Of a DNA stretch of 64,000 bases, positions 5,204-16,218 are shown piece after piece. Numbering within the stretch: the stretch's first letter is position 1; each line of letters begins with the position of its first letter. A model generated the notes under the pieces. That model did not search any database. It worked only from the letters and a program-made list of their open reading frames with translations, and was not told where the DNA came from. The position numbers and the translations under genes were made by a program. The stretch comes from Candidatus Binatia bacterium. Its GTDB lineage: Bacteria > Vulcanimicrobiota > Vulcanimicrobiia > Vulcanimicrobiales > Vulcanimicrobiaceae. Location: assembly GCA_035544215.1 (NCBI GenBank), contig DATKHY010000003.1:506501-570500 (forward strand). The letters are read 5' to 3'.

Positions 5204-5240
5204 AGGTGAAGTTCTTCGCCGCGCGGAAGGCGCCGCTCCT

Positions 5241-6644
5241 ATGGCGAGCACCGTCCCGTCGGCCCGTACGGCCGGCCTATCGTACTGCGCGAACGCGCTA
5301 GAGGCCATCGGCCACACCCCGCTTGTCAAGCTGAACAAGGTCGTCGACGGCGCGCCATGCCTCGTGCTCGCCAAGGTGGAGTACGTCAACCCGGGCGGCA
5401 GCGTAAAGGATCGCCCGGCCGTTGCGATGCTCGACGCGGCGGAACGGCAGGGCCTGCTGAAGCGCGGCGGCACGATCGTCGAGCCGACCAGCGGCAACAC
5501 CGGGACGGGGCTGGCAATGGCGGCGGCGATCCGCGGATATCGCTGCATCCTGGTCATGCCGGACAAGATGTCGCGTGAAAAGATCGACCTGCTGCGCGCG
5601 TACGGCGCCGAGGTCGTGATCACGCCTACGAACGTGCCGGCCGATTCCCCGGAGTCGTATTACGGGGTCGCCAACCGCCTCGCTTCCGAGATACCGGGCG
5701 CTTTTCAGCCGAACCAGTTTCACAACCACTTCAATCCCGAGGCGCACTACCACACGACCGGGCCGGAGATTTGGGAACAAACCGACGGCGCGGTGACGCA
5801 CTTCGTCGCGGGAATCGGCACCGGAGGAACGATCTCCGGAACGGCGCGCTTCCTAAAGGAGAAAAATCCCGCGGTTCACGTCATCGGCGCCGACCCCGAG
5901 GGATCGATCTACTCCGGCGACATTCCGCGTTCGTACGCCGTCGAGGGCATCGGCATGAGCTATCTCCCCGAGACGGTGGATCTGCGAGTGATCGACGAGA
6001 TCGTGCGCGTCTCGGATCGCGATTCGTTTCTGACGGCGCGGCGGATCGCGCGCGAGGAGGGCCTGCTGGTCGGCGGCTCGTCGGGAACGGCCGCGGTCGC
6101 GGCGGTCAAACTGGCCAAGACGCTTCCGGCCGACGCGATCGTCGTCGTCATCTTCCCGGACTCGGGGCGCGGCTACATGTCGAAGATCTTCAACGACGAC
6201 TGGATGATCGCCAACGGCTTCATCGCCGACGCCAAGCGTCGCGCGACGCTCGGCGACGTGCTGCGCAGCAAGACGCCGGTGCCGCCACTAATCACCGTGC
6301 AGCAGGACGACACCGTGAAGACCGCGCTTGACCTGCTGCGCAAATACGAGATTTCGCAGCTGCCCGTCATGCACGGGCACGAGCTGGTCGGCAGCGTGAA
6401 TGACGTGGGCGTGATGCAGAGCGTCTTCGATCACGCCGACATCCTCCATCAGCCGGTCAGCGAGGTGATGGGGCGCCCGTTTCCGGCCCTGGAGCAGTCC
6501 GAGGAGATCGAGCTGGCATACAAGCTGCTGACGCTCGCCAATCCGGCCATCGTCGTCACCGACGACGAGGAACCCATCGGGGTGCTGACGCGCCAAGACA
6601 TCATCACGTTCCTCTCGACCAGCTCCGAAGTCGTGCACAAGTAA
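5241..6644 (+). CDS. Cystathionine beta-synthase (PLP domain plus CBS domain pair)
   Basis: The ATG at 5241 gives 467 residues; GGAAGG lies ten bases upstream. The PLP fold-type II domain (about 15-330) has the Schiff-base lysine K56 in NPGGSVKDRP, the substrate loop EPTSGNTGTG and the phosphate-binding GIGTGGTISG. Residues about 340-460 form two CBS motifs (VQQDDTVKTALDLL... and VMGRPFPALEQSEE...). This architecture makes cystathionine from serine or O-acetylserine and homocysteine. Four bases downstream lies a cystathionine gamma-lyase-like gene, so together they would form a reverse transsulfuration operon. A plain cysteine synthase is the alternative, but the CBS pair favours CBS. Confidence 0.88.
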   Translation: MASTVPSARTAGLSYCANALEAIGHTPLVKLNKVVDGAPCLVLAKVEYVNPGGSVKDRPAVAMLDAAERQGLLKRGGTIVEPTSGNTGTGLAMAAAIRGYRCILVMPDKMSREKIDLLRAYGAEVVITPTNVPADSPESYYGVANRLASEIPGAFQPNQFHNHFNPEAHYHTTGPEIWEQTDGAVTHFVAGIGTGGTISGTARFLKEKNPAVHVIGADPEGSIYSGDIPRSYAVEGIGMSYLPETVDLRVIDEIVRVSDRDSFLTARRIAREEGLLVGGSSGTAAVAAVKLAKTLPADAIVVVIFPDSGRGYMSKIFNDDWMIANGFIADAKRRATLGDVLRSKTPVPPLITVQQDDTVKTALDLLRKYEISQLPVMHGHELVGSVNDVGVMQSVFDHADILHQPVSEVMGRPFPALEQSEEIELAYKLLTLANPAIVVTDDEEPIGVLTRQDIITFLSTSSEVVHK

Positions 6645-6648
6645 CCGC

Positions 6649-7821
6649 ATGAAATTTTCGACAAGGGCAATACATGTCGGGCAGGATCCGGATCCGACGA
6701 CCGGCGCAACGATTGTCCCGATCTATCAGACTTCCACCTACACGCAGATGCGGGTCGGCGAGCACAAGGGCTTCGACTACAGCCGGACGATCAATCCGAC
6801 ACGCCTGGCCTTGGAGCGGCAGCTTGCGTCGCTCGAGAGCGCGCGCTTCGCCAGCGCGTTTGCGAGCGGCATGGCTGCAACCTCGGCCGTGCTGGGGCTG
6901 CTCTCCGCCGGCGATCACGCCGTCGTGAGCGACGACCTGTACGGCGGCACGTATCGGCTCTTCTCGCGCGTGCTGGAACGCTACGGGATCACGTTCACGT
7001 ACGTCGACATGAGCGACCTGGCCGCCGTGCGCAACGCGGTCTCGCCCGCGACGAAGTTGTTCTGGGTCGAGACGCCCACGAATCCGCTGTTGCGCGTCGT
7101 GGACATCGCAGCGATCGCGTCGCTGCGGCGCGGCGAGCAAGTGGTCGTGGTGGACAACACGTTCGCGACGCCGTATTTCCAGCAGCCGCTGACGCTGGGC
7201 GCGCAGATCGTCGTCCACTCCACGACCAAGTACATCGGCGGACACAGCGACGTCGTCGGCGGCGCTGCCGTCACGGACGATCCCGAGCTGCACGAACGGA
7301 TCAAGTTCCAGCAGAATGCGGTGGGCGGAGTCCCCGGCCCCATCGATGCATGGTTGACGATGCGCGGTGCGAAGACGCTCGCGTTGCGAATGCGCGAGCA
7401 CGCGCGCAACGCCCAAGCGGTCGCGGAGTTCCTCGAATCGCGTGACGACGTGGCGCGAGTGTATTATCCCGGACTGCCGTCGCATCCACAGCACGAACTC
7501 GCGCGGCGCCAGATGAGTGGCTTCGGCGGGATGGTCTCGTGCGCGTTCGACGACGCCGAGCGCGCCAAGGCGTTCGCGGGACGGCTAAAGCTCTTCAGCC
7601 TGGCAGAGAGCCTCGGCGGCGTGGAATCACTGATCTGTCATCCCGGCCGCATGACGCACGGCTCGATTCCGGCGGCCGATCGCGAGCGGCGCGGCATCGG
7701 TGACGGGCTCTTGCGCCTCTCGGTCGGAATCGAGGACCTCTCAGACTTGATCGAGGATCTGCGCGCGGCGCTCGACGCTACGGCTGATTCACGGGGTACG
7801 CGACCGCCGTTACTTGCTTGA
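6649..7821 (+). CDS. Cystathionine gamma-lyase / gamma-synthase family enzyme
   Basis: A 390-residue Cys/Met-metabolism PLP enzyme. It starts KFSTRAIHVGQDPDPTTGA; the PLP lysine is K194 in VHSTTKYIGGHSD, preceded by VVVDNTFATPY; the C-terminal SLGGVESLICHPG and ADRERRGIGDGLLRLSVGIE are typical. Gamma-lyase and gamma-synthase cannot be separated from sequence alone; the position directly after the CBS gene argues for gamma-lyase acting on cystathionine to give cysteine. The 3' end overlaps the convergent secreted-protein gene by 44 bases. Confidence 0.88.
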   Translation: MKFSTRAIHVGQDPDPTTGATIVPIYQTSTYTQMRVGEHKGFDYSRTINPTRLALERQLASLESARFASAFASGMAATSAVLGLLSAGDHAVVSDDLYGGTYRLFSRVLERYGITFTYVDMSDLAAVRNAVSPATKLFWVETPTNPLLRVVDIAAIASLRRGEQVVVVDNTFATPYFQQPLTLGAQIVVHSTTKYIGGHSDVVGGAAVTDDPELHERIKFQQNAVGGVPGPIDAWLTMRGAKTLALRMREHARNAQAVAEFLESRDDVARVYYPGLPSHPQHELARRQMSGFGGMVSCAFDDAERAKAFAGRLKLFSLAESLGGVESLICHPGRMTHGSIPAADRERRGIGDGLLRLSVGIEDLSDLIEDLRAALDATADSRGTRPPLLA

Positions 7822-8347
7822 GAAGCTGCTTGGCTTCGTCCGGCCCCGCGTCGCCGAGGCGCACGGTTTCGGAGAGGACGACGCCGCGCTGGCCGTCGGC
7901 CCACACGATGGCGAACTCCTTGCGCGCATCGAATCCGCTTCCGTAAGCGATCTCGACGAACGTTGCCGGCATCCCATTGAGCAGCGTCATCGGCGTTCGA
8001 TCGCGTATCAGGGTGCCGTCCTGCGCACCATGCGTCTGGCTCTCGAACTGTCCCTCCCACTGCGATGGAGCGCCGGCGTAGTCTTCCATTGCGAGCGTGA
8101 TCTCGCGCGCATTCTCCTTGCCGGGATACACCACCCAGGCGGCGACGGTCTGGAGATCCTGCGAAAGCTGGTCGGGCGAAGTCTTGGGCTGGCGCCCTAT
8201 CAGCACTGCGTCGGGAGGCGCCGTGAAGCTCATCGCGGCATCGGTGAATACGAGCGGATCGGGTGCCGGCGTCGCGGGCGCATCCTGCGCCCAAGCCGTT
8301 CGCGCCGCAGCGATGAGTAACACCGAGAAGATCAAAAACGTTTTCAT
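7778..8347 (-). CDS. Secreted protein of unknown function
   Basis: A 189-residue protein with a clear signal peptide (KTFLIFSVLLIAAARTAWAQ, cleavage after AWA) and a soluble remainder with no domain I recognise. It contains PDAVLIGRQPKTSP near the N-terminus and YAGAPSQWEGQFESQ in the middle. The start overlaps the end of the esterase gene by four bases (ATGA), so the two are probably co-transcribed and translationally coupled; it may be a periplasmic partner of the esterase. Confidence 0.75.
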   Translation of the reverse strand: MKTFLIFSVLLIAAARTAWAQDAPATPAPDPLVFTDAAMSFTAPPDAVLIGRQPKTSPDQLSQDLQTVAAWVVYPGKENAREITLAMEDYAGAPSQWEGQFESQTHGAQDGTLIRDRTPMTLLNGMPATFVEIAYGSGFDARKEFAIVWADGQRGVVLSETVRLGDAGPDEAKQLLKQVTAVAYPVNQP

Positions 8348-9384
8348 TCGTTGTCCAAAACTGCGGTGAGCGCGGGGAGCGACACCGCGTAGCGATATCC
8401 GACGTTGCGGTGGTCGTCGTCGAATTCCTCGTGGCGGACGTCCAGCCCGAGGTCGCGGATGCGCCGGGCGACGACCCGGGCGCCGATGTCGAGGTTGTAT
8501 TCGTCACGGCGCCCGCAGTCGAGGTAGCGCAGGCGCAGGCGGCTCAGCTGGGCCTTGTGCTTGGCTACGCGCTCGGCCGGGTCGAAGGCCAGCCAACGGG
8601 CGAAGACGTCCGGCAGCAGCTCGCCGCTCGCTCTATCGAAGGGCAGATCGAGGTCGAACGCCTTCGCAGAACGTGGCGAGTACGCGGCGGCGTAGGCGAG
8701 CATTTCCATCGTCGTGTACTCCGCCGAACTGCGTTTGGGCTTGCGTTCGAAGCCGGCCACGAAGGCCGAGATATCGAACGCATGCGCCTCAAGAGCTCGC
8801 TGCACCGTCGCGAACGCCGGCGGATGCGCGTATTGAAAGTACGAGTCGCCGCTGTGCGACGCGAACGCGCCGAAGACACCCGGATGGTCGAGCACGAGGT
8901 GCATCGCGCCGAAGCCGCCCGACGATTTGCCGAGCACTGCGCGGCCGCCTTCGGAGCGAATCGTGTGGTAGTGCTCGTCGACGTGCCCGACGACGTCGCG
9001 AACCGTGTACGTTGCGTAGCCACCGTTGTGAACCGAGTCGACGTACTGCGAGCCGCCGAGCCGCGTGAAGCCGTCGACGAGCACGACCAACGCCGGCGCC
9101 ATCTCGCGCCGCTCGATGAGGCGATCGGCCCATTGCAGCACGTTCGTCTCCCACGGCCGGGTGGACACCAGCGCCGCGGCGTCGCCGGTGTAGCCGTGCA
9201 GCACGTAGAGCACCGGGTAGCGGCGCGAGCCCTCCGCATCGTACGCGGCGGGCCGGTAGACGACGACCGGACGCTCCGACGGATCGCCGAGCGGATTTCC
9301 CGCGAGCGCGTCGCTGCGCACGAAATCGATCGCGACGTCGCCCGCGAGACCGAGCAGCCGCGCTAGGCCGGAACGCCCCTGCAT
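8344..9384 (-). CDS. Esterase, alpha/beta hydrolase (esterase D / feruloyl-esterase-like)
   Basis: A 346-residue protein with the alpha/beta hydrolase features of the putative esterase family: PVLYVLHGYTGD (oxyanion-hole region), the nucleophile elbow GKSSGGFGA, SHSGDSYFQYA after it, and a late DDHRNVGYRY with the likely catalytic histidine. No signal peptide is visible. The family includes S-formylglutathione hydrolase, antigen-85-like and feruloyl esterases; the substrate cannot be chosen. It is divergent from the permease-GH35 fusion gene with only about 37 bases between starts, which suggests joint control and perhaps a role in removing acyl groups from glycosides. Confidence 0.8.
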   Translation of the reverse strand: MQGRSGLARLLGLAGDVAIDFVRSDALAGNPLGDPSERPVVVYRPAAYDAEGSRRYPVLYVLHGYTGDAAALVSTRPWETNVLQWADRLIERREMAPALVVLVDGFTRLGGSQYVDSVHNGGYATYTVRDVVGHVDEHYHTIRSEGGRAVLGKSSGGFGAMHLVLDHPGVFGAFASHSGDSYFQYAHPPAFATVQRALEAHAFDISAFVAGFERKPKRSSAEYTTMEMLAYAAAYSPRSAKAFDLDLPFDRASGELLPDVFARWLAFDPAERVAKHKAQLSRLRLRYLDCGRRDEYNLDIGARVVARRIRDLGLDVRHEEFDDDHRNVGYRYAVSLPALTAVLDNE

Positions 9385-9421: not shown

Positions 9422-12400
9422 ATGAACGAGTTGAAGCGCGCGATCGATTTACGCAGCGCGATATCAATCAACGTCATCACGATGATCGGAATCGGGCCGC
9501 TCGTGACTATCCCGCTCGTGGTCGCCGCGCTCGGCGGCCCGCTCGCGCTCGTCGGGTGGATCGCCGGCGCGATCGTCGCGCTGTGCGACGGCCTGGTCTG
9601 GGCGGAGCTGTCGTCGCGCTATCCCGGATCGGGCGGAACGTACGTGTATCTGCGCGAGGTATTCGGGCCGCAGCGGCTGGGGAAGGCCCTCGCGTTCCTG
9701 TTCAACTGGCAGTTTCTCTTGTACGCGCCGTGCCTGCTGGCCAGCGGCTACATCGGCTTCGCGAACTACGCGGCGTACCTATATCCGCCGCTGGCCGGCA
9801 ACGTCTTCGCGCACGACGCTGCGGCGGTCGGGATCGGCGCGGTCACGCTAGTGCTCCTGTATCGGCGCACGTCGCAGGTCGCGTCGGTCGGAAACCTGCT
9901 CGCGATCGCGGCCGCGCTGACCGTCGCGCTGGTGGCGTTGGCCGGACTGTCGCATGCGGACTTCCATCGCGCCTTCGCTCTGGCGCAGCCGGTGCGCTTC
10001 AACTGGGCGTTTCTGGCTGGCTTCGCGAGCGCGCTGGTCATCACGCTCTACGACTACGTCGGCTACTCCGACGCCGCACTGCTCGGCGACGAGGTCATTC
10101 GGCCACAGCGCACGATACCGCTGGCGATCGTGGTCTCGGTCGTGATCGTGGCGATCCTGTACGTGCTGTTGCAGGTCGGCGTCCTCGGCAGCGTTCCGTG
10201 GCGTTCGCTGCTCGACGCGCACGGCGTGCCCACGGCACAGGCGCAGTATGTCGGTGCCTTCGTCGTGGAGCGAACGTGGGGGCGCGTCGCCGCGATCGGC
10301 GTGACGCTGCTCGTGCTCGTCACGGCGTTCGCGTCGCTGTATGGGAATCTGCTCGGCTTTTCGCGGATCTCGTACGCGGCCGCGCGCGACGGCGCGTTCC
10401 TCCCCGCGTTCGGTCGGCTGCACCCGCGTAAGGACATTCCGCACGTTGCGCTGATCGTCGTCGGGGGACTGTCGCTGGTCGCGAGCCTATTCACGCTGGA
10501 TCAGGTGATCGCGTTTTTAACGGCGGGGATCGTGTTGATTCAGGGAATCGCGCAGATCGTTGCGCTTGGCCTGTTGCGGGCTCGACGCGCCGCGGCGCCG
10601 TTTCGCATGCCGCTCTATCCGCTGCCCGCGATCGTGGCGCTCGCGGGCTGGAGCCTGGCCTTCGTGGGCTCCGGCGCCGGCGCGATCGCGCTCGGCGTGG
10701 GATGGCTCGCGGCCGGTGCGCTCGTCTTTCTCGTGGTAGCGCGCACCCGGCGCTGGTGGCCCTTTGCCGTCGCCGCCGTCGCGGCTGTGGTGCTCGCCGC
10801 GCTGCCGCGCGCGGATGCGTCCGCAGCCGGCTGGTCGTCGTGGAACGCTGCACGCGTCGTTTCAGAGCGAGGCTACCCGGTGTTCACCGTAAACGGCAGG
10901 CCCTTCTTCGTGTACGGCGCCGCGTTCTTTTACGAACGCATTCCGCGCGACCGTTGGCGCGAAACGCTCGTCGCCTACAAGCGGCTCGGCATCAACACCA
11001 TCGACCTGTATTGCATTTGGAACTGGCACGAGCCGAGCGAAGGCGTCGCCGACTTCACGGGCAGTACCGATGCCCGGCGCGACCTCGTTGGCTTGCTGGC
11101 GCTGAGTCACGAGCTGGGGTTCAAGCTGATCCTGCGACCGGGACCCGTCATTCGCAACGAGTGGCGCAACGGCGGCTATCCCGCGTGGCTGCTCGAGCGA
11201 CCGGAGTACCGCATGCCGCTGCACGACGTGCTCGAGGGGCGGTATCCCGCGACGGCCACGCTTCAGAACGCGCACGCGGACGCTGCGGCCGCGGAGTGGC
11301 TCGCGAACGACACGCACCTCAACGAGACCGAGGCGTGGCTTCGCGACGTCCTGCGGGCGGTCGAGCCTTACTCGAGCGACGTGCTCGCGATTGCGCTCGA
11401 CGACGACCAGGGCGCGTATCTCGATAACGACACGTGGCCGGCGCCGCATTGGCGCGCCTACATCGGGTGGCTGCGCTCCACGGTCCAATCGATCGCGGGA
11501 TCGCGCGTTCCGCTTTTCATCAATACGTACGAGATGAAGGTGACTGCGGCGTCGCCCGTGTGGGCGTGGGGGAACTGGTACCAGAGCGGCTCGTACCGCA
11601 TCGGAGCGCACGATCTCGCGGACTTGGACTTCGCGACGGGACTGCTGCAGACGCAGTCGCGCATGCCGGTGATGCAGTCGGAGTTCCAAGCGGGATGGTT
11701 TCAAGGCGCCGACGAGGGAGCGCCGCGGCCGAGCGACCCCGCCAACACGGCGCTCGCACTCGCGGAGCTGCTGCGCGACGGCGCGCACGGCGTGGTGAAC
11801 TTTCCGGTGCAGGACACGATCTATCCGCACGGCTGGGAAGCGCCGTGGGCGAACTGGTCGTACGCGTGGGACGCGGCGCTCACGGTCGACGTGCGCGCAT
11901 CGCCGCGCTACGCGCCGACGCGTGCGTTCGGCGACCTCGTCGCGCGTTACGGCCCGCTGCTCGCCCGCACGCACGTCGCGGCGGATGCTTGGATCGTCTG
12001 GCCCGCGAGCCTTTACGTTCCGGGGAGCCTGAGTAACGACGATTTCGCCGCGCTTGCGAGCGCGACCGTCGCCGCGCAGCGTGCCTGCAACTCACGTGGG
12101 TTGAGCTGCATGCTCGTCGATCTGGCGGCGACGAGCGATCGCGCGCTGCGAACCAAGGCGCTTCTCCTTCCGCTTCCGCCGACGGGCATCGGCGGCGGTC
12201 GGATTCAAGCGTGGGCTGTTACCAGGCTGCGGGATCTGCGCGAAAACGGGCGCCTCGTTGCGGATCTGTCGAAGATTCGGCCGATTGCGCGCGACAGAAG
12301 TGTACCAAACACGACGCTGCTCCTGGCAAACGATTCGTCGTACGGCTTCATCGTCGCGGTGAACGCGAGCCGTACGGTGCGGCGAGTTGTTGTCGGCGCG

Positions 12401-13204
12401 GTTCGGTTAGGGCGCCGAAGCGTGAAGGTCCCGACGTTCTATTTGGCATCCGGCGGTGCGCGCCTGGTCGCTGTGGGCGCAACAGGCGCCGCGCCGAACC
12501 GCGCGCCGTGGCCGGCGCGGGGCACTCCACCGCCGTTTAAGGATCCGGGAGGCACGGTGATAGCCAACGCGCACCTACGCGTCGTCTTCGCGCCGTTCGC
12601 CGGCGCGCGGATCGCGGAGCTCGGTGACGAGCACGGCAACGCGGCGGCGAGCATCGGCCTGCTGCGCGACGCGACCGATCCGCAGCCGCCGGTATCGCCG
12701 CGCGACTTCATCGCGGGATACACGCATCCGTTGCCGGCCGGGACCTTTAATCGCGAGTACGCCTGCGACCGCGTGGATCTCGGGACGACCGCACGCGCGA
12801 CGTGTTCCTACGACGCGCCGGATCTGCCGAGCGGCGGCGCGGTCTTCAAACGCACGCTGACGCTGAACGGAAACGGCAGCGAGCTCATGAGCACGGAAGA
12901 GTTTTCGCCGCACGATCCGCGCTCGGCGGCTCGCCTTGAGAGCATCTCAGGCTTCGCGTTCGTCCCTGGGGACCGGATGCTCACCGCTTCGCAAAGAGAT
13001 GCCGTTGCGATCTTGCACGGGACGCGGCTCGTGCGGCTACGCTGGCGTCCCGGAGACGTGGCGCACCTCGACTTGCGGCAGACGCGCGGCGCCGCGCTCG
13101 TGACGCTGATCTTCGCGCGCCGGTCGGTAGAGATGGGTCTTGGCGTGTATCACGTTGGTGGCGCCGCCGAGGCACAGCGCCTGGTCGACTCGAAACAGCC
13201 GTAG
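9422..13204 (+). CDS. Fusion: APC-superfamily permease with GH35-type glycosidase domain
   Basis: One uninterrupted 1260-residue frame. Residues about 1-440 are an APC-superfamily permease: about 12 hydrophobic segments, with GIGPLVTIPLV in TM1 and AELSSRYPGSGGTYVYLREVF in the TM2-3 loop. Residues about 443-468 (RRWWPFAVAAVAAVVLAALP then RADASA) read like a signal peptide or a thirteenth helix, which would put the rest outside the inner membrane. From about 480 a GH35 domain begins (YPVFTVNGRPFFVYG, then KRLGINTIDLYCIWNWHEPSEG, then RPGPVIRNEW). The nucleophile motif is SEFQAGW (E754); the acid/base motif, normally ENEYG, is DDDQG (D660-G664). The last 300 residues are beta-rich. No start-stop pair separates the two parts. 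Confidence 0.85.
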   Translation: MNELKRAIDLRSAISINVITMIGIGPLVTIPLVVAALGGPLALVGWIAGAIVALCDGLVWAELSSRYPGSGGTYVYLREVFGPQRLGKALAFLFNWQFLLYAPCLLASGYIGFANYAAYLYPPLAGNVFAHDAAAVGIGAVTLVLLYRRTSQVASVGNLLAIAAALTVALVALAGLSHADFHRAFALAQPVRFNWAFLAGFASALVITLYDYVGYSDAALLGDEVIRPQRTIPLAIVVSVVIVAILYVLLQVGVLGSVPWRSLLDAHGVPTAQAQYVGAFVVERTWGRVAAIGVTLLVLVTAFASLYGNLLGFSRISYAAARDGAFLPAFGRLHPRKDIPHVALIVVGGLSLVASLFTLDQVIAFLTAGIVLIQGIAQIVALGLLRARRAAAPFRMPLYPLPAIVALAGWSLAFVGSGAGAIALGVGWLAAGALVFLVVARTRRWWPFAVAAVAAVVLAALPRADASAAGWSSWNAARVVSERGYPVFTVNGRPFFVYGAAFFYERIPRDRWRETLVAYKRLGINTIDLYCIWNWHEPSEGVADFTGSTDARRDLVGLLALSHELGFKLILRPGPVIRNEWRNGGYPAWLLERPEYRMPLHDVLEGRYPATATLQNAHADAAAAEWLANDTHLNETEAWLRDVLRAVEPYSSDVLAIALDDDQGAYLDNDTWPAPHWRAYIGWLRSTVQSIAGSRVPLFINTYEMKVTAASPVWAWGNWYQSGSYRIGAHDLADLDFATGLLQTQSRMPVMQSEFQAGWFQGADEGAPRPSDPANTALALAELLRDGAHGVVNFPVQDTIYPHGWEAPWANWSYAWDAALTVDVRASPRYAPTRAFGDLVARYGPLLARTHVAADAWIVWPASLYVPGSLSNDDFAALASATVAAQRACNSRGLSCMLVDLAATSDRALRTKALLLPLPPTGIGGGRIQAWAVTRLRDLRENGRLVADLSKIRPIARDRSVPNTTLLLANDSSYGFIVAVNASRTVRRVVVGAVRLGRRSVKVPTFYLASGGARLVAVGATGAAPNRAPWPARGTPPPFKDPGGTVIANAHLRVVFAPFAGARIAELGDEHGNAAASIGLLRDATDPQPPVSPRDFIAGYTHPLPAGTFNREYACDRVDLGTTARATCSYDAPDLPSGGAVFKRTLTLNGNGSELMSTEEFSPHDPRSAARLESISGFAFVPGDRMLTASQRDAVAILHGTRLVRLRWRPGDVAHLDLRQTRGAALVTLIFARRSVEMGLGVYHVGGAAEAQRLVDSKQP

Positions 13205-13369: not shown

Positions 13370-13711
13370 TTAAGGGCTTGTCAGCCAGTGAATAATGCCG
13401 TCCGTTGCCCGGCGCGCGTTATTCTCAAAGCCGCTGAGAATCGCACTGATCAATATTTCGCGCCCGTCGTCGACTGACGTCTTTTCGTGAAAGTCTTCCT
13501 TTTCCAGGAGGCGCGCTTGTCTCGACAGCGCGGGGTCGAAGAGAAGCCGCAGCGCCGCCAGTAGATTCGACTTACCGACGTTGTTCGGCCCGATGATTGC
13601 GGTGACCGGCGTCGCGAAGGGCACCGCGACCTCGCTAAAGTTCCGAAAGTTACGTATGTAGAGTTTTTCGATGTGGATAGTAAATAGCCCCAATGGCGAT
13701 AGCTTCCACAC
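13370..13711 (-). pseudogene. Truncated OLD-family / AAA ATPase nuclease fragment
   Basis: A 113-residue frame whose useful start is HIEKLYIRNFRNFSEVAVPF, followed by TAIIGPNNVGKSNLLAALRL, a Walker A motif (GPNNVGKS) of the RecF/OLD type. OLD-family ATPase-nucleases run to about 500-700 residues with a C-terminal Toprim domain; here the frame ends soon after the first beta-hairpin region. No continuation is seen downstream, where the tRNA-Leu gene comes next. It is most likely a remnant of a defence or mobile-element gene left at the tRNA site. Confidence 0.65.
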
Positions 13712-14190
13712 AATAGCGTCCGAGAAGTGCCTTGTTCGTCAAGGGCTACAGCTAAGCCGTTGGGGGAAGCGTAGAAAGCGACACTGTTGGCATGGGCTAC
13801 AGCTAATGATGTTCTCGACGCGGCGGGCGCCCAAAGGTTTCGCGAACGGCGCACCGAGGAAATGCGGGCCATGCTGGGCACCGGGCAAAGCCGCGGCTTA
13901 CGTGAAGTAGCGCCGAAGTCCTTAGACTGAGGCGAGGCAATCGCCGAGGGCATCGCCGCAATCGCAGCTGGGCACTCGAGCATCCGGGTCAGCGCGACGA
14001 AGCGTGGTTCAAGCGCGAGATTGTGCCGAAGCTCGATGCGTTCTCGCTCAACGAGATCGCCGAGGCTACGGAGCTATCGCTCGCAGCTTGCTCGCGTATG
14101 CGATCTGCAAACAGGCTCCTGGCGTTGCTCTCGGCAGAGAATGACGCTGGCGAGACCCTTGCGATCGCGGCTACGGATGCTATACTGAGC
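13712..14190. other. Gene-debris zone
   Basis: No intact gene is seen. On the plus strand, 13801-13929 is open for about 45 codons (ANDVLDAAGAQRFRERRTEE...) and ends in a stop with no start. At 13981-14100 a second open piece reads HPGQRDEAWFKREIVPKLDA then FSLNEIAEATELSLAACSRM, which looks like the end of a small helix-turn-helix protein; after it the frame turns into unrelated sequence, as if by frameshift. A 13-base direct repeat GGGCTACAGCTAA lies at 13743-13755 and 13794-13806. The zone probably holds remnants of mobile-element genes. Confidence 0.45.
14159..14186 (+). promoter_or_regulatory. Putative promoter of the haem-c protein gene
   Basis: TTGCGA, a 16-base spacer and TATACT at 14181-14186 form a good sigma-70-type promoter. 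It would leave a leader of about 85-90 bases before the ATG at 14281, which is preceded by GGAGGG. Confidence 0.5.
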
Positions 14191-14280
14191 TAGCTGGAGG
14201 TGGCTAGCTTATCAGGCCAAGCCAGGCGAACCGTCCGAGTCCTGGCTACCGGAGCAATCCGCGCAGCGAAGGAGGGCACG

Positions 14281-16218
14281 ATGCGGATCGGATCGGAGTC
14301 GGTTTCGAGCACGTTGAGGTTGTGGGTACTGTTACTCGTTCCGGCGCTAACATTAGCCCAGGGTGGGGGCGGCGCGACGAATAACACGCAGTTGCCTACC
14401 GATGCCGCCGCCACGTGCACGGTCGCGGCTCCCACGTTTGCGAAGTGGTTCGCATCTGGCGCGCCGAGCCTGAACGGTATCGTGAGTCCCGACAGCGCGC
14501 AGTTCGCCATTCAAGGCACAACCACAACACCGTTCGCAAACTGCCCGTTCTATCAGTGGGCCGAACAGACGTTTCTGTGGGCGACCTCGCCTGCGCCCGC
14601 TTCGTATGGGGGCAAAGGGTTAGTCTTCTCTTCGCTAGCGTTCTTCATCGTCCCACCGGCGGACGCGAGTGGGAAAAGGATACTGCTATCACAGATCGGT
14701 AACACGCCCCCGACGTTTCAGTTGCGCTCGGCACAGGTTGGGCCCCACGGCAAACCCGTCATTTTTTCGGTCGCTGGGCAGATGCTCGAGGTTGCACTTC
14801 CGAGTCAGGGCCAAAGGCCGCTAGTGCGGGCCATATCCCGGCAACTGGTTCAAATCGCGCACGCTCGGCTCGGATCCAATGGAATGCCCATGTTACTGGA
14901 CGCTCATGGTAGCACCATTGAAGCTCAGAAACTCGACCTACGACACCGCACAAAAAGTTCGCTTATTGTCACGAAGTTCACAATCGACAACATCAATGTA
15001 TTTATAGGTCCGCTTAATCAGGTCATCGATGTCGAGCAGAACGAAGCGGTCGATAACGGGGTCTTGGAATCTCAGGCCGGATCGCTCATATACTACGAGA
15101 CGCTCGTTAACGACGTATACGCCTATTTTGCAACAGCGAGAATGGACGGAAAGATGCCGCAGCCATCCCCGCGATTCCCTACGACGCTAGGGGATTTGGA
15201 ACGGGTAGTGGCATTCGCACAGGAGCATAAGGTGACCTTCCCCGATATAAATGCACTGGTTGTCGAGTTGAAAACATCGTGGGTCGAGGCCTCGACGGTT
15301 CCTGACGTGAGTTCCTACATTACGACGACCGCGACGATACCCACCTATAAGCACACGAGCACCAAGAAATGGACTCAAAGCGGGCAAAAGACGGTGCTTA
15401 TGGCGCTCGTTGGCATGCACGTCGTTGGAGCCGTCCCGGGCCATCCGGAACTCATTTGGGCCACATTCGAACATTTCGCGAACGCGCCACGCGACTCGTA
15501 TACATATATCAACTCGAGCAACAGTGTAACGACCCGTTCGATCGATGCCACCGATCCGCCGATTGGGCCTAACGGCCCGGCGGCCCAATGGCTGTTTGCC
15601 ACTAACGGAGCGACTTCCAACAACCCCCCCAAGAAGGGCGGGTTCAACGCCATGCACATGCGGTACAGTACTCCCCCACCCGAGATCAATGGTGTCAGCG
15701 GATTCATCGTTAGTCCCAGTGACACCATCCGCTCAAAGGCCTTTGGCGTGGCCGATGTGGTTCCAAATCCTCTGGAGAACTGTCAAGGCCCTGGTGGAGG
15801 ACGCATCTCCCCTTGTACGCCCGGCTGTCCCATCACCACTTGTACGAGCACCACCGATCTAATTGCCTCCGCGAATACGGAGATCATCTCGATCAACAAT
15901 TCCGTACAAGCGCAACTGATTAGCGGAGATGTGCGCGCGAACTATTTGCTAACGGGAGCAACTTGGACCCCAGGGGGCGTAGCACCTAACGGATTTTCTT
16001 TTGGAGACCCTTCCGATAATGGCAATGCGGTGGGCACCAGCTTTCTCTCCAATACGACGATGGAGACGTACCAACAGGGCACCGATAGTACGCATGAACA
16101 CAGCTCAACGAACTGCTTCACGTGTCACCAAGGAAGAAACGCGCAAGGTATTCCCCTTCTATTCCCAAACAGCCTGAGCCATATCTACGGCGCATTAAGG
16201 CCGTTGTTCTCGAATTAA
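14281..16218 (+). CDS. Secreted cytochrome-c-type protein with one C-terminal haem site
   Basis: The ATG at 14281 gives 645 residues; GGAGGG lies a few bases upstream and a signal peptide follows (STLRLWVLLLVPALTLA). Features: CPFYQWAEQTFLWATSPAP near residue 90, a motif of large secreted cytochrome-c family proteins in soil bacteria, and a single CFTCH haem-attachment site at residues 612-616 (NCFTCHQGRN). The middle is unassigned. Haem c would be attached in the periplasm. Base composition and codon use are visibly more A/T-rich than in the flanking housekeeping genes. A cupredoxin follows 145 bases later, so the two could exchange electrons. No catalytic role can be named. Confidence 0.8.
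   Translation: MRIGSESVSSTLRLWVLLLVPALTLAQGGGGATNNTQLPTDAAATCTVAAPTFAKWFASGAPSLNGIVSPDSAQFAIQGTTTTPFANCPFYQWAEQTFLWATSPAPASYGGKGLVFSSLAFFIVPPADASGKRILLSQIGNTPPTFQLRSAQVGPHGKPVIFSVAGQMLEVALPSQGQRPLVRAISRQLVQIAHARLGSNGMPMLLDAHGSTIEAQKLDLRHRTKSSLIVTKFTIDNINVFIGPLNQVIDVEQNEAVDNGVLESQAGSLIYYETLVNDVYAYFATARMDGKMPQPSPRFPTTLGDLERVVAFAQEHKVTFPDINALVVELKTSWVEASTVPDVSSYITTTATIPTYKHTSTKKWTQSGQKTVLMALVGMHVVGAVPGHPELIWATFEHFANAPRDSYTYINSSNSVTTRSIDATDPPIGPNGPAAQWLFATNGATSNNPPKKGGFNAMHMRYSTPPPEINGVSGFIVSPSDTIRSKAFGVADVVPNPLENCQGPGGGRISPCTPGCPITTCTSTTDLIASANTEIISINNSVQAQLISGDVRANYLLTGATWTPGGVAPNGFSFGDPSDNGNAVGTSFLSNTTMETYQQGTDSTHEHSSTNCFTCHQGRNAQGIPLLFPNSLSHIYGALRPLFSN

What the first reader, a model, noticed from the sequence alone, without database searches (positions are those of the whole stretch)
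9422..13204. Permease and GH35-type glycosidase joined in one 1260-residue protein
Seen: a single uninterrupted frame with an APC-type 12-helix transporter (about 1-440), a signal-peptide-like thirteenth helix (about 443-468) and a GH35-type domain plus beta-rich tail. Known: APC permeases normally end after TM12 with both ends inside; GH35 enzymes are separate. Inferred: TM13 would place the glycosidase outside the inner membrane beside its own transporter, so the product released could be taken up by the same molecule, for example an amino-sugar conjugate or glycosylated amino acid. A fused uptake-and-cleavage unit of this kind is unusual to my knowledge and could be an undescribed scavenging system with the divergent esterase.
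Basis: partly seen in the sequence, partly recalled or inferred. Interest (0 to 1): 0.78.

Follow-up and report, generated by a model that had tools for sequence, protein, structure and literature searches.

The report
Permease–glycosidase fusion with internal signal peptide
A soil-bacterium gene really does encode an amino-acid transporter and a secreted sugar-cutting-type enzyme as one continuous protein, but the segment joining them looks like a conserved secretion signal with a cutting site, so the two halves may well be separated after synthesis.

Summary
Window 9422-13204 is one 1260-codon frame: an L-type (LAT-like) APC permease, a thirteenth hydrophobic segment and a GH35-like enzyme. 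It is no assembly error: 47 of 79 well-covered family genomes (Eremiobacterota/Vulcanimicrobiota) carry it fused. Another 16 carry both halves as separate genes, and 8 have the enzyme only.

The reading needs one correction. "TM13" is a Sec signal peptide. Standalone permeases end about 10 residues after an invariant W-P-F. In every fusion a short hydrophobic core starts right after W-P-F, followed in nearly all by a helix breaker and an A-x-A signal-peptidase motif (31 of 34 representatives; shuffles 17.4 ± 2.6; 0 of 5000 reach it). Standalone enzymes mostly carry an ordinary N-terminal signal peptide there.

The best explanation is a polyprotein that signal peptidase I may split into permease and periplasmic enzyme. 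A permanently tethered unit is not excluded. The enzyme resembles archaeal exo-glucosaminidases: it keeps the nucleophile, the amine-recognising Asp and two other subsite -1 residues, but the acid/base Glu is invariably Asp. The substrate is unknown. Interest is moderate.

The parts
9422..10744 (+). LAT-like APC permease, residues 1-441, 12 TM segments
   Evidence: AA_permease_2 E 3e-34; best folds BasC 9h76 (TMt 0.84), y+LAT1, LAT1; positive-inside topology
10757..10765 (+). W446-P447-F448, native C-terminal tail motif of the permease and point of fusion
   Evidence: W-P-[FY] in all fused proteins; WPF also closes standalone permeases, about 10 residues before their end
10751..10807 (+). TM13 = internal signal-peptide core, residues 444-462
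   Evidence: weakest hydrophobic segment; modelled as a 15-residue helix, H446-460; replaced by an N-terminal signal peptide in most standalone enzymes
10811..10825 (+). predicted signal peptidase I site A464-D-A466-S-A468
   Evidence: A-x-A kept in 31 of 34 junction representatives vs shuffles 21.6 +/- 2.5; with helix breaker 31 vs 17.4 +/- 2.6, 0/5000; lowest-confidence stretch of the model, 458-471
10874..11971 (+). GH35-like (beta/alpha)8 barrel, about residues 485-850
   Evidence: Glyco_hydro_35 E 5.5e-31; AF2 pLDDT 88.8; best Foldseek match archaeal exo-beta-D-glucosaminidase 8oug E 6e-23
11399..11407 (+). D660-D661-D662, position of the GH35 acid/base motif (E-N-E in beta-galactosidases, D-E in GlmA); acid/base Glu replaced by Asp
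   Evidence: invariant in 48 of 48 sequences; aligned with LENEYG of a canonical GH35 and IDDE of 5gsl; at the end of barrel strand 4
11681..11683 (+). E754, predicted nucleophile (SEFQAGW), end of barrel strand 7
   Evidence: invariant in 48 of 48; aligned with GEYWAGW of canonical GH35; strand 750-756
12299..13201 (+). C-terminal beta-rich domains, about residues 960-1260
   Evidence: AF2 secondary structure; less conserved than the barrel
8344..9384 (-). divergent esterase-fold gene, conserved neighbour
   Evidence: PF00756 E 4e-16; beside the fused or the standalone enzyme gene in most loci
7778..8347 (-). small protein with signal-peptide-like start, no known family, conserved neighbour
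   Evidence: no Pfam hit; conserved synteny
6649..7821 (+). Cys/Met metabolism PLP enzyme, conserved neighbour
   Evidence: PF01053 E 8e-152
5235..6644 (+). cysteine/cystathionine beta-synthase-type enzyme with CBS domains, conserved neighbour
   Evidence: PF00291 E 1.5e-78, PF00571

Best explanation
The gene encodes a polyprotein: a LAT-type amino-acid permease whose normal C-terminal tail (R-W-W-P-F) runs straight into the signal-peptide core of a secreted GH35-like enzyme. The permease tail serves as the positively charged start of that signal peptide, so the enzyme crosses the inner membrane behind TM12. Signal peptidase I then probably cuts at the conserved A-x-A, leaving a 12-TM permease in the membrane and a free periplasmic enzyme, made in equal amounts. 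The enzyme probably works on a 2-amino-sugar glycoside by a retaining mechanism with an Asp in the acid/base position. Shown: the fusion, its conservation, the junction, the motif, the topology signal and the active-site pattern. Inferred: the cutting itself, activity, substrate, and any link between what is cut and what is imported.
For: Standalone permeases end shortly after W-P-F, exactly where the signal core begins in fusions. Most standalone enzymes carry Sec signal peptides in the same place. A helix breaker plus A-x-A occurs in 31 of 34 junctions vs 17.4 +/- 2.6 in shuffles, and in 30 of 33 vs 14.4 expected from hydrophobic windows of the same permeases. A-x-A typically starts 14-18 residues after W-P-F, giving a signal-peptide-length core. 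The joint is a disordered linker. Four signal peptidase I-family genes are in the genome. Positive-inside topology. No conserved internal start with Shine-Dalgarno (1 of 47). Active-site residues of GH35/GlmA are invariant apart from Glu to Asp.
Against: No protein data: cutting is not demonstrated. The linker is alanine-rich, so the motif is partly expected by composition (shuffles already give 17-22 of 34). Three representatives lack a clear A-x-A. If free proteins were the only product, selection for fusion rests on equal dosage alone. E to D at the acid/base site could mean weak or lost hydrolysis.
Confidence: 0.55

Rival explanations
1. Tethered unit: TM13 is a permanent anchor, the glycosidase stays bound to its own transporter and feeds it the released product.
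For: Fusion kept over about 50% sequence divergence in 47 of 79 family genomes; outside topology; 16 of the 24 genomes with a standalone enzyme still hold the permease orthologue.
Against: Short core and conserved cleavage motif; halves split repeatedly and lie apart; enzyme without detectable permease in 8 genomes; no confident docking in the model.
Confidence: 0.25
2. Bacterial analogue of heteromeric amino-acid transporters: the GH-fold ectodomain (cut or uncut) is a non-catalytic or weakly catalytic partner of a LAT-type permease, as CD98hc/rBAT (GH13-like) are for SLC7 light chains.
For: Permease best matches LAT structures; ectodomain is a glycosidase-fold protein with altered acid/base residue.
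Against: Different GH family; active-site residues are invariant, which suggests catalysis; the enzyme occurs without the permease in 8 genomes; no predicted interface.
Confidence: 0.12
3. Two proteins are made by internal translation start in front of the signal peptide, the full-length form being minor.
For: Some fusions have GTG/TTG codons near the junction.
Against: No conserved position and only 1 of 47 with a Shine-Dalgarno-like core upstream.
Confidence: 0.04
4. Assembly or sequencing error joining two genes.
For: Separate homologues exist.
Against: Same junction in dozens of independent assemblies with intact frame.
Confidence: 0.01

Closest known systems
[quoted passage not shown]
   Same: Closest solved fold (8oug, 6jow, 5gsl, 5gsm); Asp before the acid/base position, Tyr and Glu of subsite -1 kept
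   Different: Acid/base Glu is Asp here in 48/48; carries a signal peptide; fused to a permease; about 15% identity
GH35 beta-1,2-glucosyltransferase IaSGT (Ignavibacterium album)
   Same: Similar fold, TMt about 0.54
   Different: Has Asn-Glu at the acid/base site and no signal peptide
Bacterial LAT exchanger BasC and SLC7 L-type transporters
   Same: Permease fold, TMt 0.84
   Different: BasC has no glycosidase part; in animals the heavy chain is a separate SLC3 protein that first appeared in metazoans (PMC6472337)
Rhizobial cytochrome b/c1 precursor (fbcH), from my own knowledge; not found in the papers held
   Same: Multi-span membrane protein plus internal signal peptide plus periplasmic protein in one reading frame, cut after synthesis
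   Different: Respiratory complex subunits; unrelated proteins

Membership tests
APC / LAT-like permease | 12-TM APC fold with AA_permease_2 signature | tested here: met
APC / LAT-like permease | amino-acid exchange activity | not testable with these tools
   needs transport assay
GH35 | Glyco_hydro_35 profile above curated cut-off | tested here: met
   108.8 bits vs 27, but only model positions 2-108 of 319
GH35 | catalytic Glu nucleophile on barrel strand 7 | tested here: met
   E754 invariant, strand 750-756
GH35 | catalytic acid/base Glu on barrel strand 4 | tested here: not met
   D662 in 48 of 48; so called GH35-like here
Sec signal peptide with signal peptidase I site | positive n-region, short h-core, helix breaker, A-x-A | tested here: met
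   internal rather than N-terminal
Sec signal peptide with signal peptidase I site | actual cleavage | not testable with these tools
   needs protein data
Heteromeric amino-acid transporter | SLC3 (GH13-type) heavy chain joined to a LAT light chain | tested here: not met
   ectodomain is GH35-like, C-terminal and fused

The most novel reading that the evidence does not exclude
A single-chain bacterial LAT permease that keeps a GH35-like ectodomain on its outer face for long enough to matter: a one-gene counterpart of the animal transporter/heavy-chain pair, with the ectodomain cutting or binding an amino-sugar conjugate whose product the same transporter takes up, and with signal-peptidase cutting as an optional switch.
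Probability: 0.18. Interest if true: 0.75.

Novelty: new variant of a known kind. Interest (0 to 1): 0.5.

Why it matters
Bacterial reading frames that couple a polytopic transporter to a secreted enzyme through an internal signal peptide seem to be rare, and this one is conserved across a bacterial family with natural split versions for comparison. It allows direct tests of whether signal peptidase cuts inside multi-span proteins and why cells keep such fusions. The invariant Glu-to-Asp change in a GH35-type active site is a second testable oddity.

Tried and rejected
Assembly error (rejected). Internal translation start (rejected). Operon logic: the Cys/Met genes and the esterase stay beside the enzyme gene whether or not the permease is there, so they do not explain the fusion; fusions without these neighbours also exist (L021, L087, L089). 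Lipoprotein anchoring of the enzyme: no lipobox seen by eye at the junctions. Literature searches for a described permease-glycosidase fusion or for this family gave nothing relevant; the rhizobial precedent could not be confirmed in the papers held. Whether fusion came once and then split, or several times, is not settled: the locus tree needs 11 changes of state, at least 5 on well-supported branches, and standalone permeases nest inside fused ones when rooted on distant permeases, which favours early fusion with later splits, but the root branch is very long.

Full report
What is there. Window 9422-13204 (+) is a single open frame of 1260 codons. Residues 12-415 match amino-acid permeases (PF13520, E 3e-34) and 488-598 match the first third of the GH35 profile (PF01301, E 5.5e-31). 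Hydropathy finds 13 segments; K+R counts in alternate loops (22 vs 5) give an inside N-terminus, an inside end after TM12, and an outside enzyme.

It is real and widespread. A search of the order returned 83 genomes at least 80% complete, 79 of them in the window's family. I count: 47 fused (two split by contig ends), 16 with both halves as separate genes, 8 with the enzyme only, 3 with the permease only, 3 with neither and 2 fragments. The four order members outside the family have neither. A scan of 84,980 species for the enzyme's most conserved peptides returned 72 loci; nearly all are named Eremiobacterota/Vulcanimicrobiota, the rest being unnamed bacteria and two Rhodospirillales-labelled MAGs that match contigs of the window's family. 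The first isolate of the phylum is Gram-negative with two membranes (PMC9758169).

The junction. In standalone permeases the protein ends about 10 residues after W-P-F. In every fusion a short apolar core starts directly after W-P-F, followed in nearly all by a Pro/Gly and A-x-A, e.g. VPAGARA, LPAGARA, QPATARA. Most standalone enzymes carry ordinary N-terminal signal peptides at this place, for example MRPTRFALALVAALAALLPLRANA; some have only a short hydrophobic start without the motif. In 34 junction representatives, helix breaker plus A-x-A is present in 31, against 17.4 +/- 2.6 after shuffling the linker (0 of 5000), and in 30 of 33 against 14.4 expected from hydrophobic windows of the same permeases. 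The linker is alanine-rich, so composition explains part but not all of it. The genome has four signal peptidase I-family genes, three in tandem. There is no conserved internal start with a ribosome-binding site.

History. The enzyme locus keeps its neighbours (CBS-type synthase, Cys/Met PLP enzyme, small secreted-type protein, esterase) in fused and separate versions alike. On a tree of three neighbours the fused/separate state changes 11 times, at least 5 on well-supported branches. On a permease tree rooted with distant permeases, standalone permeases fall inside fused ones, so an early fusion with repeated separation is favoured, not proved.

The enzyme. The model of residues 477-1260 is good (pLDDT 88.8) and matches archaeal exo-beta-D-glucosaminidases best (8oug, E 6e-23). 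In GlmA, Glu179 is acid/base, Glu347 the nucleophile, and Asp178 recognises the amino group of glucosamine (PMC6566704). Here D661 takes the Asp178 place, D662 the Glu179 place and E754 lies at the end of strand 7; all are invariant in 48 sequences. GlmA's nucleophile cannot be placed from sequence alone, so E754 rests on the model strands and on alignment to a canonical GH35 from a relative. I read this as a probably active amino-sugar glycosidase with an unusual acid/base; activity and substrate are inference.

The permease. The 1200-residue model has two confident halves, a disordered 458-471 and pTM 0.61, so it predicts no fixed docking. The permease half matches the bacterial LAT BasC and animal LATs. 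This makes the animal LAT/heavy-chain pairs a fair comparison of layout, but the heavy chains are separate SLC3 proteins that first appeared in animals (PMC6472337) and, from general knowledge, GH13-like, so membership fails.

Verdict. The fusion is real, conserved and apparently undescribed in the papers held. The simplest mechanism is a polyprotein with an internal, probably cleavable, signal peptide.

Noticed in passing
L158 1418-4363 (-), and relatives L124-L128, L130: A second GH35-like fusion in the same family: GH35 plus beta-galactosidase beta domain joined to a multicopper oxidase in one frame (PF01301, PF13364, PF07731, PF07732), apparently without the usual catalytic Glu motifs.
   Followed up: partly
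5235-9384: Cys/Met biosynthesis pair, a small signal-peptide protein of no known family and an esterase keep their order beside the enzyme gene across the family.
   Followed up: partly
13370-13983 (-): AAA ATPase N-terminal piece (113 aa) that looks split over two frames, a possible gene remnant.
   Followed up: no
14200-16218 (+): 672-aa protein with no Pfam match and a late CFTCHQG (CxxCH) motif, possibly a haem protein.
   Followed up: no
G000:C7:720959-722779: Three signal peptidase I genes in tandem.
   Followed up: no
L038 (G022): The permease alone sits between the Cys/Met gene and the esterase, with no enzyme half found in that genome.
   Followed up: partly
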